Shown: positions 13,716 to 24,745 of the stretch, piece after piece
Position numbering within the stretch: the stretch's first letter is position 1
Layout: each line of letters opens with the position of its first letter
Assembly: GCA_900299195.1 (NCBI GenBank)
Contig: OMIX01000043.1
Span: forward strand, 1 to 43,570
Direction: 5' to 3'
Length of the DNA stretch: 43,570 bases
Origin: Deltaproteobacteria bacterium
GTDB lineage: Bacteria > Bdellovibrionota > FAC87 > UBA2466
Program-made: the position numbers and the translations under genes
The notes under the pieces: model-generated
Database searches by the model: none
Told to the model about the DNA's origin: nothing
Seen by the model: the letters and a program-made list of their open reading frames with translations, nothing else

Positions 13716-14774
13716 ATGAATAATAATAAATTTTCAACTTTAGAATCTGTCAAAAATTATTATGGAAAAGTTCTTAAAAACACCGCTGATCTGCAAACTT
13801 CGGCCTGTTGTTCGGCAGAGGCTCTGCCCCGATTTGCAAGAGAGATAGTCAAAGAAATTCATCCCGAAGTTGTTGAAAAGTTTTATGGCTGTGGCAGCCC
13901 TTTTCCACCGGCACTTGAAGGGAGAACTGTTTTAGATTTGGGCTGTGGAGCGGGTCGGGACGTTTATTTGCTCTCCAAATTGGTAGGAGAAAAAGGAAAA
14001 GTGATTGGCGTTGATATGACTGAAGAGCAATTAGAGGTTGCGAAGCGCCATATCGACTATCATCGAGCTAAGTTTAAATATCGTGAGCCCAACGTTCAGT
14101 TTTTCAAAGGCTATATTGAGGATCTCGAATCGGCAGGAATCAAGTCCAATTCAATCGATCTTGTAGTTTCAAATTGTGTGACCAACCTTTCTCCTAACAA
14201 AGATCGAGTTTTTTCTGAGATTTTTCGAGTTTTAAAGCCTGGAGGGGAGCTTTATTTTAGTGATGTTTTTTCAAATCGAAGAATTCCCGAACCTCTTACC
14301 GAGGATCCTGTATTGCTGGGGGAGTGTTTAGGGGGCGCAATGTACAAAGAAGATTTTCGTCGACTTCTCGCTCGCCTTGGATGCCAGGATTTTCGTGTGG
14401 TGTCCTCATCGCCGATCACTCTAAATAACCCTGAAATTGAAAAGAAGATAGGAATGGTGGGTTTTCAGTCTATTACCTTCAGAGCTTTTAAATTGGATTT
14501 AGAAGATCGGTGTGAAGATTATGGACAAATCGCCTTTTATCAAGGAACCATTGAAGATCATCCTCATTCTTTCATGTTGGATGACCATCATCTCTTTAAA
14601 ACAGGACAACCGATGTTGGTGTGTGGAAATACTGCCGACATGATTTCTAAAACTTGGTATAAAAATCACTTTAAGGTTGTTGGAGAAAAGAACACTCATC
14701 TAGGCTTGTTTGATTGTGGCCCCACGCCTATAAGTTCGGCTTCAGCGGATTGCTCAACTGGAGCTTGCTGCTAG
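13716..14774 (+). CDS. arsM: Arsenite S-adenosylmethionine methyltransferase
   Basis: 352 residues. The class I methyltransferase core begins at TVLDLGCGAGRDVYLLSKLVG (71-91). ArsM arsenic-binding cysteines are all present: CC at 31-32 (LQTSACC), C59 (YGCGSPFP), C154 (SNCVTNLSP) and C204 (GECLGGA). The 50-residue spacing from C154 to C204 equals that between the catalytic cysteines of the algal enzyme CmArsM as I recall it. The ~100-residue C-terminal domain is typical of the longer ArsM group, and the protein ends CSTGACC, a further thiol-rich motif. It methylates As(III) with SAM. It is 8 bases upstream of the aquaporin gene. Confidence 0.92.
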   Translation: MNNNKFSTLESVKNYYGKVLKNTADLQTSACCSAEALPRFAREIVKEIHPEVVEKFYGCGSPFPPALEGRTVLDLGCGAGRDVYLLSKLVGEKGKVIGVDMTEEQLEVAKRHIDYHRAKFKYREPNVQFFKGYIEDLESAGIKSNSIDLVVSNCVTNLSPNKDRVFSEIFRVLKPGGELYFSDVFSNRRIPEPLTEDPVLLGECLGGAMYKEDFRRLLARLGCQDFRVVSSSPITLNNPEIEKKIGMVGFQSITFRAFKLDLEDRCEDYGQIAFYQGTIEDHPHSFMLDDHHLFKTGQPMLVCGNTADMISKTWYKNHFKVVGEKNTHLGLFDCGPTPISSASADCSTGACC

Positions 14775-14782
14775 GGGGAAAA

Positions 14783-15445
14783 GTGGAAAAGAAGAAAATA
14801 ATTTCTGAGTTTTTGGGCTCTTTAGCACTTCTGTTAATCGTTGTAGGCTCTGGCATTATGGGGGAGAAACTTGCTGCAGGAAATATCGCGATAGCTTTAC
14901 TCGCCAATTCCTTAGCTACGGGGGCAGGGCTGTACGTTTTGATTACGACGTTAGGACCTGTTTCGGGGGCCCATTTTAATCCGGCGGTGAGTTCCTATAA
15001 AAAGTGGCGAAAAGAGATCTCGACTTCAACTTGGTTGGGTTACATGGTGGCCCAATTAGTGGGTGGGATTTTAGGTGTTTTTTTGGCTCATTATATTTTT
15101 GAGCTCCCCTTGTTTCAGGTTTCTCAACATACTCGAGATGGATTGCCTCAAATTGTTTCAGAAATGGTGGCTACTTTTGGGTTACTCTTTACCATTTCGG
15201 GATTTGGTCGATTTCAGCCTGCTAAGACAGCCATGGGTGTGGCTTTATACATAGTGGGAGCCTATTGGTTTACTTCTTCTACTTCCTTTGCCAATCCCGC
15301 AGTTTCTATCGCACGTAGTTTTACGGATACATTTGCTGGGATTGCTCCACACAGTTTGTGGGGTTACATCGCAGGTCAGTTGGGGGCAGTGGTTTTGTTT
15401 GTGGCGGTGGAGCCTATGTTGTTTGCAAAAGAAATAAACAACTAG
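14783..15445 (+). CDS. MIP-family aquaglyceroporin, AqpS-like
   Basis: 220 residues, predicted six membrane helices. Both channel motifs are present: SGAHFNPAVS in the first half and FANPAVSIAR in the second, the latter with the selectivity-filter arginine. I use the GTG at 14783, 8 bases after arsM with GGGGG just upstream; the ORF is open into arsM but that part has no MIP similarity. In several ars operons AqpS replaces an active pump and lets trivalent or methylated arsenicals diffuse out, a fitting role here. Water or glycerol transport cannot be excluded. Confidence 0.9.
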   Translation: MEKKKIISEFLGSLALLLIVVGSGIMGEKLAAGNIAIALLANSLATGAGLYVLITTLGPVSGAHFNPAVSSYKKWRKEISTSTWLGYMVAQLVGGILGVFLAHYIFELPLFQVSQHTRDGLPQIVSEMVATFGLLFTISGFGRFQPAKTAMGVALYIVGAYWFTSSTSFANPAVSIARSFTDTFAGIAPHSLWGYIAGQLGAVVLFVAVEPMLFAKEINN

Positions 15446-15459
15446 GGAGGTTACTCAAC

Positions 15460-16212
15460 ATGAAAAGCTTTAAAAGTTTGGGGGTAATGCTAATGGCAGG
15501 ACAACTTTTGGGAACTCAACCCGCCAGCGAACAGTTGTTTACAAAGTTAAAAAACCATTTGTCGGGTTTGAGTAAGGAACTTTCAAAAAAGCCGATCACC
15601 CATTTGGATCAAGCCAAAAAAATCGCAGAGGCGATTTCAAAGTTGCATCAGCCCGGGAAAGAGCTCCCGATTGTGGTGGTGTGCACTGGAAATTCAAGAA
15701 GAAGCATGATGGGGGCTGCCATGGGAAATGCTTCGGCAGCTCTTTTTGAACTAGGCGAGTTAAGGTTTTACTCTGGAGGAACGGCCCCAAGCGCTTTTAA
15801 TTCAAGAACTATAGCTTCTTTGAAAGAGGCAGGATTTGAAGTGGAACCTACGGGTAAACAAGCCACCAAGGGGAGTAAAGGGGAAGAAAACCCAATTTAT
15901 TGGGTAAAATGGGGCAAGGGGCAACAGTTTCAAATGGAAGAATACTCGAAACAATATGGGGATCCCCAAAATCCGCAGAAGGATTTTATCGCTCTCATGG
16001 TGTGTGATGAGGCGAGTAAAAACTGTCCAGTCGTTAAAGGGGCGAAGTACCGTTTTGCGATCCCATTTGAAGATCCCAAAGCTTTTGATGGGACCGCTCA
16101 AGAAAAAGCTATGTACAGTGCCAAAAGAGATGATTTGGGAAGATTTATGTTAAAGACCTTAGAGTTGGTTAAGGACTTTGAAGGAAATCAACCCAATTCG
16201 ATGAATCATTAA
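15460..16212 (+). CDS. Low-molecular-weight phosphatase / arsenate reductase-like protein
   Basis: 250 residues from ATG 15460 with GGGAGG nine bases upstream. The active-site P-loop VVCTGNSRRS has C75 and R81 (Cx5R); LMVCDEASKNCPVV and IPFEDPKAFDG match the arsenate-reductase-like branch of the LMW-PTP fold. An N-terminal extension of ~65 residues precedes the fold, and its first 22 residues resemble a signal peptide, so export is possible. It may reduce arsenate to feed ArsM or dephosphorylate another substrate. It lies 14 bases after the aquaporin gene. Confidence 0.82.
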   Translation: MKSFKSLGVMLMAGQLLGTQPASEQLFTKLKNHLSGLSKELSKKPITHLDQAKKIAEAISKLHQPGKELPIVVVCTGNSRRSMMGAAMGNASAALFELGELRFYSGGTAPSAFNSRTIASLKEAGFEVEPTGKQATKGSKGEENPIYWVKWGKGQQFQMEEYSKQYGDPQNPQKDFIALMVCDEASKNCPVVKGAKYRFAIPFEDPKAFDGTAQEKAMYSAKRDDLGRFMLKTLELVKDFEGNQPNSMNH

Positions 16213-18146: not shown

Positions 18147-20630
18147 TTAGGGCAGCGGTTTAACTTGTGTTTTTAGATGTAACTGAGTTTTGAGATCTCC
18201 AGTGGGGATTCCATTGGCCAACAGTAAATGTCCATAGTCTTCGTCAGTGTCCAATTCCAAATTCCAAACATCTTCTGGGGCTTGGTAATTGAGTTTTTTG
18301 ACACTTTTGACTTTTTTACTTTGGCGATCTCCAATCAAAACTGTCCCGGCTTTCAGGGTCTGGGTTTGTACCCAACCGGATGCAGTGAGAAAGGGATGAT
18401 CTTCTGTTACCACCACATCTTGGTTTCCATAATTTACCCGCCATAACGATTTTTTCTCAGGCCCTTTGACGACTTTTTTCACTCGAACCGGAACGTTATA
18501 AAGCGGATTAAGAACCCATTCGTCCGAACTAATCTCAGAAACTTTTCTTTCTGAGCCATCTGCCATTTTTATCGTGGTAGAACCCGCAAAGCATCCGCCT
18601 TGGCGATACATGCTTCGTTTGGTGTTAATCACAGAACACTGGCTATCCCGTTTGACTGCGTTGATGTCGGATGCGATTTTTCTAAGGTAATTGTCTCCAT
18701 AAGGCATCGAAAGGCCCACTTCAATCCAGTAAAACTGAATATTGGAGTAGGTGTTGGATTCATTAAATTCATCCCTTCCATCCAGTTTTACCCCAAAATG
18801 GCCCCCCGCTGATGAGGTTCTTTTTACCACCATGCAATAGTGTCCTGGAGTGCAAAGTTCATTGTGGTCTTTAATGAGAAAGGCTCCGGTGCCCGCGTAC
18901 TCATTGGTAAAATCTGCAGAAAAACCCACTAACGATGCAGGTCCGGAAGTGAGAGTGGCGGTGTAAGGGGAACCCCCAGCCACGTTCGTTCTAGTGTAGG
19001 TTTTGTATCCCATCGTGTAAATAAGATCGTCTGGGGCCACACCCACCCGTCCATCTTCGTCTCCTACTTCTTTAAAAACTGAATTGTTAGCAAAGAGCTT
19101 GGCCTCATAGTTGGTATCATTGAAGGGGCAACCTTGAGAATTTAAAACGACCGAATAGGGGTATTCTCTACCCGTGATCGATTTGACCGTTACTGTGAGT
19201 GTTTGAACTCCAGTTCCTTGTTTTACGAAGGGTTTTGAAAAAGTACGGTTATTAGCGTTGTCGGGTTGATCGGCACTATTGTTAAATTTTTTTGTTCTTA
19301 CTTTAAACTTTTTGCCCTCAATAGTTTTCTCCTCTTCAACTTCGGTGTACTTTCCTCGTCTAAACCCCGAGTTTTGACCGGGGTGTGAATTCACAACTAT
19401 TGATAGGTCAGCCACGGGTCCACCGAGAGGGCTATTACAGTCGGCAATGATATCGATCGTTTCGCCAGGCACGGGATTGGGCTGAGAAGCGTAAACATTA
19501 CAAATAGGCTCTAGCGGATAATCCACTTTCAAAGACATATTACAGTCGGTCGTCGCTCCATCTAAACCCGCAACTCGTGCAATGATATTCCAATTTTGTA
19601 TTCTGGGATTGGTGGGGTCGTAAGTTACTCCGAGTTGTCCCGTCATAGATTCACCCTTACTTTTAGGGATGCGGAAGGTAAATCCCGATGGTTTTAGAGG
19701 CTTCATTTCGCCATAACCACTCATCGCGTAACGATCGAAGCTGTTGTAATTGGCTTCAGTCCCATCGGGTAAAATGATTTTTGCGTTGGAGGTAACGCTG
19801 TCGGTTTGGATTTGAAAAACTGTATCGTAATCTCCTTGGGTAAAAAGAGGGATAGGCTGAGCCGAAATAGCTGAGAGCTGACAAGACGGGGTTGCGGGGG
19901 GATTGATAGGGAAAAGAGCTAAAGTAGATTTTGCCCCCGATTGGATTGAAAAAAGGACTTTGGCAAGCTTGTTAGGATTGCTGCTGTCTGCGATTAGCTT
20001 TTTAAATACGACTCCCGAGTCACTTAACAATTTATTGAGAGGAGCTCGTGCACCGGGAGTAAAAAGATCGAGCCGTTCAGTCAGCGATAAATTGTTGAAG
20101 TTAGGAAAGGAGATAAGTCCAGAGGGAACTTGAGAGAGGTCGGTTCCAGAGGGCTGTGCCGCAGATAGAACACTTCCTAAGCCCGAGCCATCGGCTAGGT
20201 AATTAACTACGTTGCAATCGTCAGGTGACAAGGCTTTTTTGGGGAACGGAGAGATGGCTTGGCAAGTTCCGCTGTCATCTTTGTGTCCTTGAACCCAGTA
20301 GAGCGCCACAAAGGTGTCCGAGGCAATTGCCGAGGGGCTCAGTGCCTTAAGCGTAGGCGAGGGCGCACTGCTCGTCATTTCGCTTGCCACTGGATAAAAT
20401 TGAGTGGACCAATCTGGTTTTAATTTTCCGTTAAGTTGAATTTTTTTATAGACCAAATCGGCTACTAAAGAGCTTTGACCCGAAGCCTGGGCTTGATTTT
20501 GAGCCGTAGCCACCGTTTTAGAAAACTGGCCGATTTGTGAAAGCATGACGGTAAGAGAAGCCAGACCCAACCCTCCCAAAATTACAACTAGGATCAACGC
20601 GTTTCCTTTGCGACTGGTGAGTGTATTCAT
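18147..20630 (-). CDS. Giant pilin-like protein with a C-terminal Hint (hedgehog/intein) domain
   Basis: 827 residues. The N-terminus RKGNALILVVILGGLGLASLTVMLSQI resembles a PilX-type class III signal and transmembrane helix (cleavage after G9), without the Glu5 of major pilins. Residues ~240-640 are beta-rich with Ig-like stretches (PNPVPGETIDIIADC). The final 148 residues start at C680: CFAGSTTIKMADGS, then VVTEDHPFLTASGW and DYGHLLLANGIPTGDL, the ordered blocks of a Hint domain. The C-terminal His-Asn plus nucleophile needed for protein splicing is absent, so cleavage or thioester chemistry is more likely than splicing. It is divergent from a pilin-like operon. Confidence 0.82.
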   Translation of the reverse strand: MNTLTSRKGNALILVVILGGLGLASLTVMLSQIGQFSKTVATAQNQAQASGQSSLVADLVYKKIQLNGKLKPDWSTQFYPVASEMTSSAPSPTLKALSPSAIASDTFVALYWVQGHKDDSGTCQAISPFPKKALSPDDCNVVNYLADGSGLGSVLSAAQPSGTDLSQVPSGLISFPNFNNLSLTERLDLFTPGARAPLNKLLSDSGVVFKKLIADSSNPNKLAKVLFSIQSGAKSTLALFPINPPATPSCQLSAISAQPIPLFTQGDYDTVFQIQTDSVTSNAKIILPDGTEANYNSFDRYAMSGYGEMKPLKPSGFTFRIPKSKGESMTGQLGVTYDPTNPRIQNWNIIARVAGLDGATTDCNMSLKVDYPLEPICNVYASQPNPVPGETIDIIADCNSPLGGPVADLSIVVNSHPGQNSGFRRGKYTEVEEEKTIEGKKFKVRTKKFNNSADQPDNANNRTFSKPFVKQGTGVQTLTVTVKSITGREYPYSVVLNSQGCPFNDTNYEAKLFANNSVFKEVGDEDGRVGVAPDDLIYTMGYKTYTRTNVAGGSPYTATLTSGPASLVGFSADFTNEYAGTGAFLIKDHNELCTPGHYCMVVKRTSSAGGHFGVKLDGRDEFNESNTYSNIQFYWIEVGLSMPYGDNYLRKIASDINAVKRDSQCSVINTKRSMYRQGGCFAGSTTIKMADGSERKVSEISSDEWVLNPLYNVPVRVKKVVKGPEKKSLWRVNYGNQDVVVTEDHPFLTASGWVQTQTLKAGTVLIGDRQSKKVKSVKKLNYQAPEDVWNLELDTDEDYGHLLLANGIPTGDLKTQLHLKTQVKPLP

Positions 20631-20888: not shown

Positions 20889-21785
20889 ATGAAAATCAAC
20901 GTAAAGGTTATTCTTGTTTTAGTGGGAGTTGTATTCATAGGTGCGTTAGTTCTAAGAAAGAAACGGTCAAGTTTAGAAACTTTCAAACCGGAAAACAAAG
21001 TTGCCGAGAGTGCTCCAGCGGCACCTAGTCCCGAGATCTTAACTCCTGAGCAGGTTCAGGCTCTGCCCCGATCCCAAGGTAACATTCAAACTATCGTTCA
21101 AAGAGATAAAATGGAGAAGGCCGTCGGTTTTAAGCAAATGCCGCTGACTGTGGAAGGCGGAGAGGCAAAGCTTAAAGTGGTTCTTTCAGTCAAACCCGTC
21201 TGTCATCCCGGAGATGCGGATGCTTTTATTCAAGACCTTAAGGCTGAGCCTTCTCATAAAATTTTGGCCTCTTTAGAGGAACTCACCGGAAAAGAACGAA
21301 AAATCTCCTGGGAAATTCCTAAAACTATTTTTAAAGATGGCAAAGCTGAGAAGGTGTTTCAGATTCCAGTGGGACCGGATCCTGTCCAATACGGTTTTTT
21401 TATTTGCACTGCAAAAAGTCGCGATACTTTTTGTGGGGACAAACCTTTGAAGGATGTGAATGAAATTTTTACAGAACACATGAACAAACAACCCAATGCG
21501 GGCAAAGAGCCCCGAAATATCTTTTTCCAGTATTTTCTGGTCGATGACAGGGGAATATCGGGTCTAACTCACATCCCCAAAGGCCCGGGTAATCCTATTT
21601 TTGATAATCTAAAAAAGTATGTTCAAGATTCTAAAATCGAAAGCAAGCCTAACCATGAAGAAATTGAACTGGTGAAAAAGGGGCTTAAGGCCAATAGTTC
21701 TTTGCCGGCGGTCTTTGATAACGGAACTTTAACCTTAGTTCTTCCTAAATTTAAGGAGTCTGCATGCTTACCCGGCCCAAATTAA
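20889..21785 (+). CDS. Single-pass membrane protein of the pilin-like operon, unknown family
   Basis: 298 residues. The N-terminal helix MKINVKVILVLVGVVFIGALVL is followed by RKKR, so it is an inner-membrane anchor with the bulk in the periplasm. After a Pro/Ala-rich linker, a folded region follows with five cysteines (VCHPGDAD, FICTAKSRDTFCGDK and a C-terminal one). I recognise no domain. Its 3' end overlaps the next prepilin-like gene by 22 bases, implying coupled translation and a role in assembling or presenting the pilin-like proteins. Confidence 0.75.
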   Translation: MKINVKVILVLVGVVFIGALVLRKKRSSLETFKPENKVAESAPAAPSPEILTPEQVQALPRSQGNIQTIVQRDKMEKAVGFKQMPLTVEGGEAKLKVVLSVKPVCHPGDADAFIQDLKAEPSHKILASLEELTGKERKISWEIPKTIFKDGKAEKVFQIPVGPDPVQYGFFICTAKSRDTFCGDKPLKDVNEIFTEHMNKQPNAGKEPRNIFFQYFLVDDRGISGLTHIPKGPGNPIFDNLKKYVQDSKIESKPNHEEIELVKKGLKANSSLPAVFDNGTLTLVLPKFKESACLPGPN

Positions 21786-22489
21786 GAAAAGTTTTAAACA
21801 ATCGAGGGAACAGCATTTTGAATGGGATCGTGGCGACCGCCTTGATTGGGGTCTCTGCTGTTTTAATTTCAAGGGGATATTTCAGCGGTCTTAAATTTAA
21901 ACAACTGGTGCAACAAAAGGCCGGTCTGACGTCAGTAGAAGACGCTTTTGTTTCTGCTTTAACTCAAGCAGCATTTTACTTGCCCCAGCCTTTCACCACA
22001 ACGAACCCTCAATTGACTTCGGCTCAATTTATGAATCGCATGTTGGGAGGATCGGGATTAGATATTTTCGGAACCGGCACTGCTGTCATGTTTGATAATA
22101 CATTGGCCTCGAAGCTAGATAAATCTAATAACGCTAAAGCTGTCCGCGAGAAGTGTAACAGTTCCTCTTTTGCCCCTAAAGTCCCCAACGCCGCTTCCCC
22201 TGCAGAGTTTATTTTTTGCCTCTCTTTTAACAACTCGAATAACAGTGGTAAAAATACTTTTATGGGCTCAGATGCCGCATTTGCATTGGTCAAAGTGACT
22301 CTCAAGGGGAGGAATGGGACGCAACGAGAGTTATTGACGGTGGTTCCTACATGGCAGAGTTTTGTGAGTGACCCACAAAGGACAGGCAATTATCAGGCTC
22401 ATGTGATGTACTCTATTTACTGGGGGAGTGAGACTGGTGAACCCAATGTGTTCGAGAAGGCCGGGTTTGCGATTAAGGATTTGCGGTGA
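21764..22489 (+). CDS. Prepilin-like protein (minor pilin candidate)
   Basis: 241 residues. The N-terminus MLTRPKLRKVLNNRGNSIL continues into the hydrophobic helix NGIVATALIGVSAVLISRGYF: a basic leader ending in Gly and a hydrophobic stretch, as in minor pilins, though Glu5 is missing. The remainder is a Ser/Asn-rich globular domain with two cysteines. AAGGAG seven bases before the ATG lies inside the preceding gene. It is followed three bases later by another prepilin-like gene. Confidence 0.75.
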   Translation: MLTRPKLRKVLNNRGNSILNGIVATALIGVSAVLISRGYFSGLKFKQLVQQKAGLTSVEDAFVSALTQAAFYLPQPFTTTNPQLTSAQFMNRMLGGSGLDIFGTGTAVMFDNTLASKLDKSNNAKAVREKCNSSSFAPKVPNAASPAEFIFCLSFNNSNNSGKNTFMGSDAAFALVKVTLKGRNGTQRELLTVVPTWQSFVSDPQRTGNYQAHVMYSIYWGSETGEPNVFEKAGFAIKDLR

Positions 22490-22492
22490 TTT

Positions 22493-23182
22493 ATGCCAAG
22501 GGAAAAGAGGAGTCATTCAAAAGGATTCTCACTGATAGAACTTTTAATTGGGGGAGTGATCACTGGAATTTTAGTTGTGGGGGCAATACAATTTTTAGAG
22601 TCTTTAAGAACCTCTCAACAAGAGGCTTCTCTTAAGGCCCAAGCGGGGGGTGACATTGCTCTATTTAATGCCAATAGAAGAAAAACTTTAACCAAATTTG
22701 ACCCATCTAATGCGATCATTGCGACTCCTTTAAGTCTCACCATCCCCAAAACCATTGTAAACAGTGTTACTTTGGTCGCTAATATTGTTAATGAAGTTAT
22801 CACCGTGAATTGTGCGGCAGTTCCTGCCAACATGGTTGCCTCTCTCCCTGCCGGATATGATTGCGGTGGGGTTTGTGGGGCTGGAAGAGTGCCGGTTTCC
22901 TTCACGGTTAATGGAGGGGAAGCTTATCCTCCACGGGCTCCTATGGTTTTTCCCGATGGAACGAATGACAAATTAGCTGCTTCGCTATGTATCAACTATA
23001 ATCCAGGGGCAGGAACCTTAAGTTTAAGAACGACTTACATTATCAGAACCGATCCACGATGGAGGGGTACCCTGGATCCACGAAAGGACCGATTGGAATA
23101 TGTTACGGAGACTGCAGTTTTGGCAGTGCCTAGACCTCTTCCCCCTGGTCAAACTCGACCTCAAATTTTAGGGGAGTTCTAA
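22493..23182 (+). CDS. Type IV prepilin-like protein with canonical N-methylation motif
   Basis: 229 residues. The class III leader is textbook: SHSKG, cleavage, then FSLIELLIGGVITGILVVGAI with Glu5. A prepilin peptidase would cleave after G11 and methylate F12. The globular part (residues 60-229) has several cysteines and Gly-rich loops and no recognised subfamily, similar in length to PilW/GspJ-type minor components. It ends the operon; the downstream gene converges on it with a 21-base gap. Confidence 0.85.
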   Translation: MPREKRSHSKGFSLIELLIGGVITGILVVGAIQFLESLRTSQQEASLKAQAGGDIALFNANRRKTLTKFDPSNAIIATPLSLTIPKTIVNSVTLVANIVNEVITVNCAAVPANMVASLPAGYDCGGVCGAGRVPVSFTVNGGEAYPPRAPMVFPDGTNDKLAASLCINYNPGAGTLSLRTTYIIRTDPRWRGTLDPRKDRLEYVTETAVLAVPRPLPPGQTRPQILGEF

Positions 23183-23203: not shown

Positions 23204-24745
23204 CTAATTAGGAGATAGGTTTTTCCACCGATCAGGAGTTTCCTTTAAAGCATCCAAATTGACAGAGGGTTGGTTCATTCTCTCGTCCACACCCAAAGTA
23301 TCTTGTGACTGACTTTCTGTTTTTAAATGAAAGCTACCCACATAAGCAACCCAAGTGGTTTGAGGATTCTTGTTTAAATATTCCTTGATAGTTTTAATCC
23401 AGTGCTCTTCACGTTTCTCTTTAGACCCATTTTTCTTTGGGAGATCAATCGCGATGGGTCTAATACCTTTAGCAGATAAACTTTTCATTAGCTCAAGTTC
23501 TCCTAACTTCAATTGAGCGTATCCTTGATTACGGCGAGTCACGGTGGTGATGAGTTTGTTAAGATTAACGGTCGTAGGATCTTTAAAAAAAGAATCCAGC
23601 AAAGGTTGTTCAGAGGTACGAAAGTGTTCTAAGAAAAAAACGGAAACACCCTTTTTCTTAAGTTCCTCAAGATGATGAATCAAAATAAAATCAGGCCAAT
23701 CCAATGCATGACCGGGATCTCCATAAAAAAAACCATTTTCAGAGTAGGGGAGTGGAAAGTTTAGATTGTTATGAGCCTTATCTTCATGGATCAGTCGACG
23801 AAAAAAATAGCTTCCTTGGGTTTTGATAAACTTTCCATCAATTTCCATGTGGGGATGAACGAAAAAATTAATCGGTCCATCCTGTGGAGTGGGAGTGAAA
23901 GTTAACTGTCGACCTCGAGTCAATTCGAAACGGTTAGCGGGGTGATGTCCAAAGTAGTAGTCTTTGGCTTCGGGGTGTTTCCAGGCCTCTGAAATATCAA
24001 CCGGAACCCATTTCCCTTGGGCTAGAAATTCGGCCCAGCAATGATAACCCTCGATTTCCCCCTCTGTTTTATCTGGGGGAATGGTAAAGCCTACCATGAA
24101 ACGACTCGGGATTTTAGCAGCTCGGGAGATCGCGATAAAGAGAGCATGAAAATCGCTACAATTTCCCTTTTTGACATCGCAAGCATAGATGGCATCTCCG
24201 CGGCCCCAGCCCACGCCACTTTTGTCGTATTTCATGACGGAGAGAACATATTCATAAATAGCGCGCCCTTTTTCTAGGTCGGTGCCTTGGCTTTTGGTGA
24301 TCTCTTGTGCCAGTTTTTTAAATCTCGGATCTAGGGGAATAAGAGGTTCGGCTTTTAAATACAGGTTAATATTTTTCTCCGTGTTTCGGTATTCCGATTT
24401 TTCAAAACGACGGACTTTGTAGTTAAAAGAAATTTTTTTTCCAGAATCATTGTGATCAAACCTAAAAAACACAGCTTGGTTTTGGAAAACCGGGTCTTTT
24501 GATTCTTTTCCTAACAGAGAACTGAATTGTTTTTGTGTCTCTACTCGTTGAAATACATCGGAATGAGCGGTTGGAATCCAAATTTCCCCTTTTTGTCCCG
24601 GGTTTAATGGGGGCAATGAAATAGAGTAGGTGAATTCAAAGAAATCTTTACCTGGAATGTAAAAAGGCGTTCCGAGAAGTAGGCGGGTGAGAAAAAATCC
24701 AATCAGAAAAAAAAATTTGTGATTCATCGTTGAAAGGTAACTCAT
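23204..24745 (-). CDS. Exported transglutaminase-core protein with ChaN/TraB-like C-terminal region
   Basis: 513 residues. An N-terminal hydrophobic export segment starts after M1 or M7 (24727); neither start has a clear ribosome binding site. Residues ~40-120 are beta-rich, then a transglutaminase/protease core: GNCSDFHALFIAISRAAKIPSRFMVGF with C196, EGYHCWAEF with H235 and VPVDISEAW with D250. The last ~180 residues (KKGVSVFFLEHF, RPIAIDLPKK, TWVAYVGSFHLKT) resemble the ChaN/EreA/Tiki-like fold but this is tentative. Such core domains are usually envelope proteases or amidases. Confidence 0.75.
   Translation of the reverse strand: MSYLSTMNHKFFFLIGFFLTRLLLGTPFYIPGKDFFEFTYSISLPPLNPGQKGEIWIPTAHSDVFQRVETQKQFSSLLGKESKDPVFQNQAVFFRFDHNDSGKKISFNYKVRRFEKSEYRNTEKNINLYLKAEPLIPLDPRFKKLAQEITKSQGTDLEKGRAIYEYVLSVMKYDKSGVGWGRGDAIYACDVKKGNCSDFHALFIAISRAAKIPSRFMVGFTIPPDKTEGEIEGYHCWAEFLAQGKWVPVDISEAWKHPEAKDYYFGHHPANRFELTRGRQLTFTPTPQDGPINFFVHPHMEIDGKFIKTQGSYFFRRLIHEDKAHNNLNFPLPYSENGFFYGDPGHALDWPDFILIHHLEELKKKGVSVFFLEHFRTSEQPLLDSFFKDPTTVNLNKLITTVTRRNQGYAQLKLGELELMKSLSAKGIRPIAIDLPKKNGSKEKREEHWIKTIKEYLNKNPQTTWVAYVGSFHLKTESQSQDTLGVDERMNQPSVNLDALKETPDRWKNLSPN

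What the first reader, a model, noticed from the sequence alone, without database searches (positions are those of the whole stretch)
18147..20630. Pilin-like protein fused to a Hint autoprocessing domain
An 827-residue protein combines a prepilin-like N-terminus with a C-terminal Hint domain (C680, TEDHPF, LLLANGIPTGD). Hint domains normally cleave or splice their own chain. At the end of a surface-exposed pilus protein this could release or covalently attach the exposed tip. The lack of the splicing Asn and +1 nucleophile suggests cleavage or attachment rather than splicing.
Basis: partly seen in the sequence, partly recalled or inferred. Interest (0 to 1): 0.75.

Follow-up and report, generated by a model that had tools for sequence, protein, structure and literature searches.

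The report
Self-processing minor pilin, Hint-type tail
A large pilus-tip protein of an uncultured relative of the predatory bacterium Bdellovibrio ends in a hedgehog/intein-type domain that probably cuts the chain and may bond its tip to something else, a domain combination that recurs in several families of this phylum and that I did not find described.

Summary
The protein is real: 827 aa, on the minus strand (18147-20630). It has a prepilin-type leader (SRKG|NALIL...), a predicted long alpha1 helix, beta domains, a poorly predicted stretch, and a C-terminal Hint domain (680-827). AlphaFold plus Foldseek put the Hint fold beyond doubt (gp41-1 intein TM 0.87; Tetrahymena BIL2 best E-value). 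Cys680 with Gly at -1 and the T742/H745 pair are conserved wherever covered. The splicing His-Asn is always replaced by Gly-Asp, followed by a conserved tail (GDLxTQ). So it is a cleavage/transfer type of Hint, not a splicing one. The same pilin-Hint gene occurs in six of about fourteen family genomes and in one genome of another family, in a four-gene set with an anchored Cys-containing protein and two pilins. Elsewhere in the phylum other pilins carry a canonical His-Asn Hint, in at least two further separate lineages of the Hint tree. The domain class is probably known (B- or C-type bacterial intein-like domains; the Bdellovibrio C-type paper was not held), but I found no report of the pilin fusion. 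Best reading: a tip minor pilin that self-cleaves at Gly679/Cys680 after export, by hydrolysis or transfer. No activity has been shown. New variant of a known kind.

The parts
18147..20630 (-). Pilin-Hint gene, 827 aa
20604..20630 (-). Prepilin-type leader, residues 1-9 (MNTLTSRKG), predicted cut before N10
   Evidence: sequence; genome has two prepilin peptidases
20439..20600 (-). alpha1 helix, residues 11-64 (hydrophobic half, no Glu at +5)
   Evidence: AlphaFold model
19107..20438 (-). Pilin-head and beta/Ig-like body, residues 65-508
   Evidence: AlphaFold model; diverges fast between homologues
18639..19106 (-). Variable, poorly predicted stretch before the Hint, residues 509-664
   Evidence: pLDDT mostly below 50
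18150..18593 (-). Hint domain, residues 680-827
18591..18593 (-). Cys680, the predicted nucleophile; Gly679 precedes it
   Evidence: Gly-Cys in 12 of 12 junctions of the pilin family
18390..18407 (-). Block B T742-E-D-H745-P-F
   Evidence: T and H invariant in A1
18183..18200 (-). Gly811-Asp812 (in place of His-Asn), L813, then Gln816
   Evidence: G, D and Q invariant in A1 and nearly so in A3
20889..21785 (+). Partner protein, 298 aa, N-terminal membrane anchor, four conserved Cys
   Evidence: no Pfam match
21764..22489 (+). Minor pilin A, 241 aa (NNRGNSILNG...)
22493..23182 (+). Minor pilin B, 229 aa (KGFSLIELLIGG...)
   Evidence: Pfam N_methyl 23.6 bits, over its cut-off

Best explanation
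It is a large minor pilin that sits at the pilus tip with two minor pilins and an anchored partner protein. The prepilin peptidase cuts its leader. After export the Hint domain folds and moves the Gly679-Cys680 peptide bond to a thioester (N-S acyl shift helped by T742/H745). Because the terminal His-Asn is replaced by Gly-Asp and no +1 nucleophile exists, splicing and Asn cyclisation cannot follow. The thioester is instead resolved by water (release of the Hint and exposure of a new C-terminal Gly on the tip) or by a nucleophile, as in hedgehog and BIL2, joining the tip covalently to an acceptor. The partner protein, found beside every copy whose flank towards the pilins is intact, is the first candidate regulator or acceptor. 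Shown: gene, fold, conserved residues, recurrence, gene set. Inferred: tip location, thioester, cleavage. Open: hydrolysis against transfer, and the acceptor.
For: Hint fold (best hits BIL2 6y75 and gp41-1 intein 6qaz). In A1 the block B T and H and the ending G, D, Q are invariant; Gly-Cys in 12 of 12 junctions and Arg at -4 in 11 of 12. The Hint is under the strongest constraint of the protein: dN 0.23 against 0.36-0.85 elsewhere. Prepilin leader, pilin neighbours, prepilin peptidases and assembly ATPases. The same gene set occurs in G000, G001, G003, G004, G012, G013 and, far off, G146, where the divergent order is as in the window. Pilins with a terminal Hint also occur in other families with a His-Asn Hint. 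BIL2 is reported to make a Lys isopeptide bond (PMC8616854).
Against: No cleavage has been measured. In all members the residue in the Asn position is Asp and the chain runs on as a conserved helix, so the class could have kept the fold for binding only. The N-terminal helix is predicted with low confidence at its start. One complete related tip gene lacks a Hint (G001:C52, L045), so the Hint is not needed by every tip. Genome-level co-occurrence with the partner may reflect gain and loss of the whole gene set.
Confidence: 0.55

Rival explanations
1. Release only (one branch of the best explanation): the Hint is a timed protease-like tail. It blocks the tip during export and is shed by hydrolysis, leaving a mature 670-residue tip; nothing is attached.
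For: BIL domains mostly give cleaved products (PMC7664689); B-type BILs, which lack the C-terminal motif, cleave at their N-terminus (PMC7765530). No sterol-recognition-like extra region follows the Hint.
Against: Gly at -1 and Arg at -4 are kept and the tail GDLxTQ is invariant, which is more than simple hydrolysis would need.
Confidence: 0.4
2. Covalent attachment (the other branch of the best explanation): the thioester is passed to an amine or hydroxyl of a partner (the 298-aa protein, a pilin, or the surface of another cell).
For: Closest solved structure is BIL2, which forms isopeptide bonds; lack of Asn as in hedgehog; constant partner protein beside intact copies; invariant Gly at the junction.
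Against: No acceptor known; the partner could simply be a pilus part of the same gene set; closest fold does not mean same reaction.
Confidence: 0.25
3. Inactive Hint kept as a binding or structural cap at the pilus tip.
For: Penultimate His and terminal Asn are lost in all members.
Against: Cys, block B T and H are invariant where covered in a family whose bodies fall to 25-35% identity; the Hint has the lowest dN.
Confidence: 0.15
4. Polymorphic-toxin arrangement: the Hint releases a toxin behind it.
For: Best Pfam hits include PT-HINT.
Against: Nothing but about 15 conserved residues follows the Gly-Asp in all pilin copies with an intact end; no immunity-like gene was recognised.
Confidence: 0.03
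5. Selfish intein remnant.
For: Shares the intein fold.
Against: No endonuclease; always C-terminal; conserved tail; same position in several pilin lineages.
Confidence: 0.02

Closest known systems
Bacterial intein-like (BIL) domains, B-type, and the C-type named from Bdellovibrio bacteriovorus (Dori-Bachash 2009, not held; cited in PMC9185962)
   Same: Hint with intact N-terminal motifs, no C-terminal His-Asn, in variable secreted proteins of the same phylum; the Gly-Asp class seen here may well be the C-type
   Different: Host protein is a pilin in a minor-pilin gene set; the C-type is said to come with a PPS-1 domain, which I could not compare
BIL2 of Tetrahymena BUBL1 (PDB 6y75, 6tmm)
   Same: Closest solved structure by sequence and fold; Gly-Cys junction in our family recalls its ubiquitin-like extein
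   Different: BIL2 has the terminal Asn and sits between two ubiquitin-like domains
Hedgehog Hog domain
   Same: C-terminal Hint without Asn, N-terminal thioester, resolved by a nucleophile
   Different: No region for sterol binding after the Hint; only 12% identity to 1at0 in the fold search
Vint (Pfam PF14623, PDB 8r2c) and PT-HINT (PF07591)
   Same: Best Pfam matches
   Different: No VWA domain, no toxin; scores at the cut-off
Minor pilins with exposed tip domains (Streptococcus sanguinis PilB/PilC; Myxococcus Kil Tips, PMC12075869)
   Same: Several minor-pilin sets per genome, each with one large variable tip protein; predator-rich lineage
   Different: Those tips carry adhesin or other variable domains; the text of PMC12075869 does not mention Hint

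Membership tests
HINT superfamily | Hint fold | tested here: met
   pLDDT 87 model; TM 0.87 to 6qaz, 0.80 to 6y75
HINT superfamily | Cys/Ser at position 1 and block B TxxH | tested here: met
   C680, T742, H745; conserved in the family
Intein (class 1) and A-type BIL | C-terminal His-Asn | tested here: not met
   Gly811-Asp812 in its place in all members
Intein (class 1) | Cys/Ser/Thr at +1 | tested here: not met
   Leu813, invariant
B-type BIL | Intein motifs present except the C-terminal one | tested here: met
   definition from PMC7765530
B-type BIL | N-terminal self-cleavage | not testable with these tools
   needs protein
C-type BIL | PPS-1 domain and type-specific motifs | not testable with these tools
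   original paper not held
Hedgehog Hog | Sterol/adduct recognition region after the Hint | tested here: not met
   Only one short helix and 15 residues after Asp812
PT-HINT polymorphic toxin | Toxin domain after the Hint | tested here: not met
   Protein ends 15 residues after Asp812
Type IV (minor) pilin | Prepilin leader with Gly at -1 and hydrophobic alpha1 | tested here: met
   SRKG|NALILVVILGGLGL; helix 11-64
Type IV (minor) pilin | Glu at +5 | tested here: not met
   Leu14; tip pseudopilins such as GspK also lack it (own knowledge)
Type IV (minor) pilin | Prepilin peptidase and assembly ATPase in the genome | tested here: met
Kil-type tip complex | Homology to KilL/KilM/KilN | not tested
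   resemblance in arrangement only

The most novel reading that the evidence does not exclude
The pilus tip carries its own ATP-free ligase: the Hint passes the tip's C-terminal Gly679 to an amine or hydroxyl on the partner protein, on the pilus or on another cell, so a bacterium of a predator lineage covalently locks its pilus tip, in the way BIL2 conjugates a ubiquitin-like domain.
Probability: 0.2. Interest if true: 0.88.

Novelty: new variant of a known kind. Interest (0 to 1): 0.6.

Why it matters
Self-processing Hint domains in bacteria are known mostly from toxins and secreted proteins without a clear role. A fusion to pilus-tip pilins, reached in several Hint lineages of one phylum that includes predators and kept with a constant partner gene, gives a defined place where their role can be tested. 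If the thioester is transferred, it would be a covalent adhesion mechanism not known for type IV pili.

Tried and rejected
First genome-contig scan with the whole protein found nothing; the conserved Hint alignment was needed. Phage and plasmid searches gave only distant Hints; two plasmid proteins share the GD..Q ending. I considered that genomes with the partner are exactly those with the pilin-Hint as proof of a Hint-partner link, but pilin A is gained and lost with them, so only one gene set (G001:C52: complete tip without Hint, no partner between tip and pilin A) speaks for the specific link; G004:C75 (L042) also lacks the partner but its tip runs off the contig. Whole-protein fold search matches to TEP1, complement and transglutaminase have rmsd near 30 and were discarded. 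The 146-aa 'orphan' Hints of G003 are contig ends at a 115-bp exact repeat, not orphan modules.

Full report
Observation. The ORF 18147-20630 is real and lies on the minus strand. It encodes 827 aa with an SD-like GGAAGG upstream. Residues 1-9 are a short positively charged leader ending in Gly, followed by an uncharged hydrophobic stretch; +5 is Leu, not Glu. Pfam finds Vint (679-761) and PT-HINT (735-794) just under the cut-offs, and NCBIfam the intein N-terminal region from 680. The nearest PDB sequence is the BIL2 domain of Tetrahymena.

Fold. With 15 homologues AlphaFold2 gives a long N-terminal helix (11-64), beta domains with Ig-like order up to about 500, a badly predicted stretch 509-653 and a well predicted C-terminal domain. 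The Hint alone with 22 relatives reaches mean pLDDT 87 and about 95 in its core. Foldseek places it with BIL2 (E 7e-11), the gp41-1 intein (TM to target 0.87, rmsd 1.9), the Clostridium BIL (0.83) and hedgehog (0.73).

Family. A paralogue lies in the same genome (G000:C61, 851 aa). Further copies are in G001, G003, G004, G012 and G013. Public titles of matching contigs name uncultured Bdellovibrionales/Bdellovibrionaceae and other metagenome bins. The Hint stays at 46-72% identity to the target while bodies fall to about 25-35% between paralogues. Against the orthologue L032 the Hint has dN 0.23, other segments 0.36-0.85, with dS saturated. The junction is Gly-Cys in 12 of 12, with Arg at -4 in 11 of 12. 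The terminal His-Asn is replaced by Gly-Asp, then Leu, then x-Thr-Gln, in every member that reaches the end.

Hint class. The same ending (Gly-Asp/Glu/Ser, Gln four on) closes many secreted proteins of the phylum with signal peptides (A3), and distant ones in Pseudoalteromonas and Tistrella. Cys1 is present in these too, also in L108, L113 and L119. So the target belongs to a wider non-splicing Hint class. It fits the stated definition of B-type BIL (all motifs but the C-terminal one; PMC7765530). A C-type BIL was described from Bdellovibrio in 2009 (cited in PMC9185962); that paper was not held, so identity of this class with the C-type is likely but untested.

Recurrence of the fusion. In 369 genomes of the phylum, 47 have a match to the Hint profile. 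Outside the home family, ten Hint proteins have a prepilin-type N-terminus by eye or rule: L105 (Gly-Asp type) and L049, L114, L118, L121, L123, L129, L132, L136, L138 (His-Asn type). The strict rule finds nine of them, against 25 of 434 other ORFs in the same stretches, many of those being true neighbouring pilins. In the Hint tree the His-Asn pilins need four label changes, two forced by well supported branches, and the Gly-Asp pilins stand apart. The fusion therefore arose, or was exchanged, more than once.

Gene set. Beside the pilin-Hint gene lie a 298-aa protein with an N-terminal anchor and four conserved Cys, and two pilins. In the window and in G146 the pilin-Hint gene is divergent from the other three; elsewhere it is co-directional. 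The 298-aa family occurs in seven of 369 genomes, the same seven that have the Gly-Asp pilin-Hint. In G146 one Cys pair is missing as a pair, as expected for disulfides. Since pilin A comes and goes with the set, this shows a unit, not yet a direct Hint-partner link; G001:C52, a complete tip without Hint and with no partner between tip and pilin A, is the one case that separates them.

Mechanism. The conserved Cys, Thr and His support the first step of Hint domains, the N-S shift at Gly679-Cys680 (established for inteins, BILs and hedgehog). The missing Asn and +1 nucleophile exclude canonical splicing. What follows is open: hydrolysis, or transfer as in hedgehog or in BIL2, where an isopeptide bond is reported (PMC8616854). 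Location at the pilus tip is inferred from the pilin signal without Glu5 and the minor-pilin neighbours; prepilin peptidases and pilus-type ATPases are in the genome. Myxococcus uses interchangeable minor-pilin tips in predation (PMC12075869), which is a model for several such sets in one genome here; whether this organism preys is unknown.

Verdict. The finding is confirmed and broader than reported; the domain class is probably known, the pilin fusion with its partner gene I did not find in the searched papers. Activity remains to be tested.

Noticed in passing
L034 8861-8863; L036 9013-9015; L038 6252-6254: Three of about ten pilin-Hint genes carry exactly one in-frame stop, each time TAA, at different places and without other damage. 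Pseudogenes or assembly errors not told apart.
   Followed up: partly
L043, L044, L039, L040 (G003): Two paralogues are about 76% identical in DNA over the pilin body but 95-100% over the start and 97% over the rest of the Hint: the Hint end looks homogenised by recombination.
   Followed up: partly
L041, L042, L045: Related tip pilins end differently: a Thr-rich linker with Ig-like and Cys-rich part, a Gly-rich part (runs off the contig), or a short Cys-rich end instead of a Hint; interchangeable tips.
   Followed up: partly
L121 4923-8984: A 1354-aa pilin-type protein of another family with two Hint domains.
   Followed up: no
window 13716-16212: Methyltransferase with CC motifs, aquaporin-family channel and low-molecular-weight phosphatase-like protein in a row: looks like an arsenic resistance cluster.
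   Followed up: partly
window 23204-24745: Secreted-looking transglutaminase-core protein next to the pilin set on the other strand.
   Followed up: no
L128, L140, L143: GyrB-like proteins of three genomes with a Hint/intein insertion after the GDSAGG motif.
   Followed up: no
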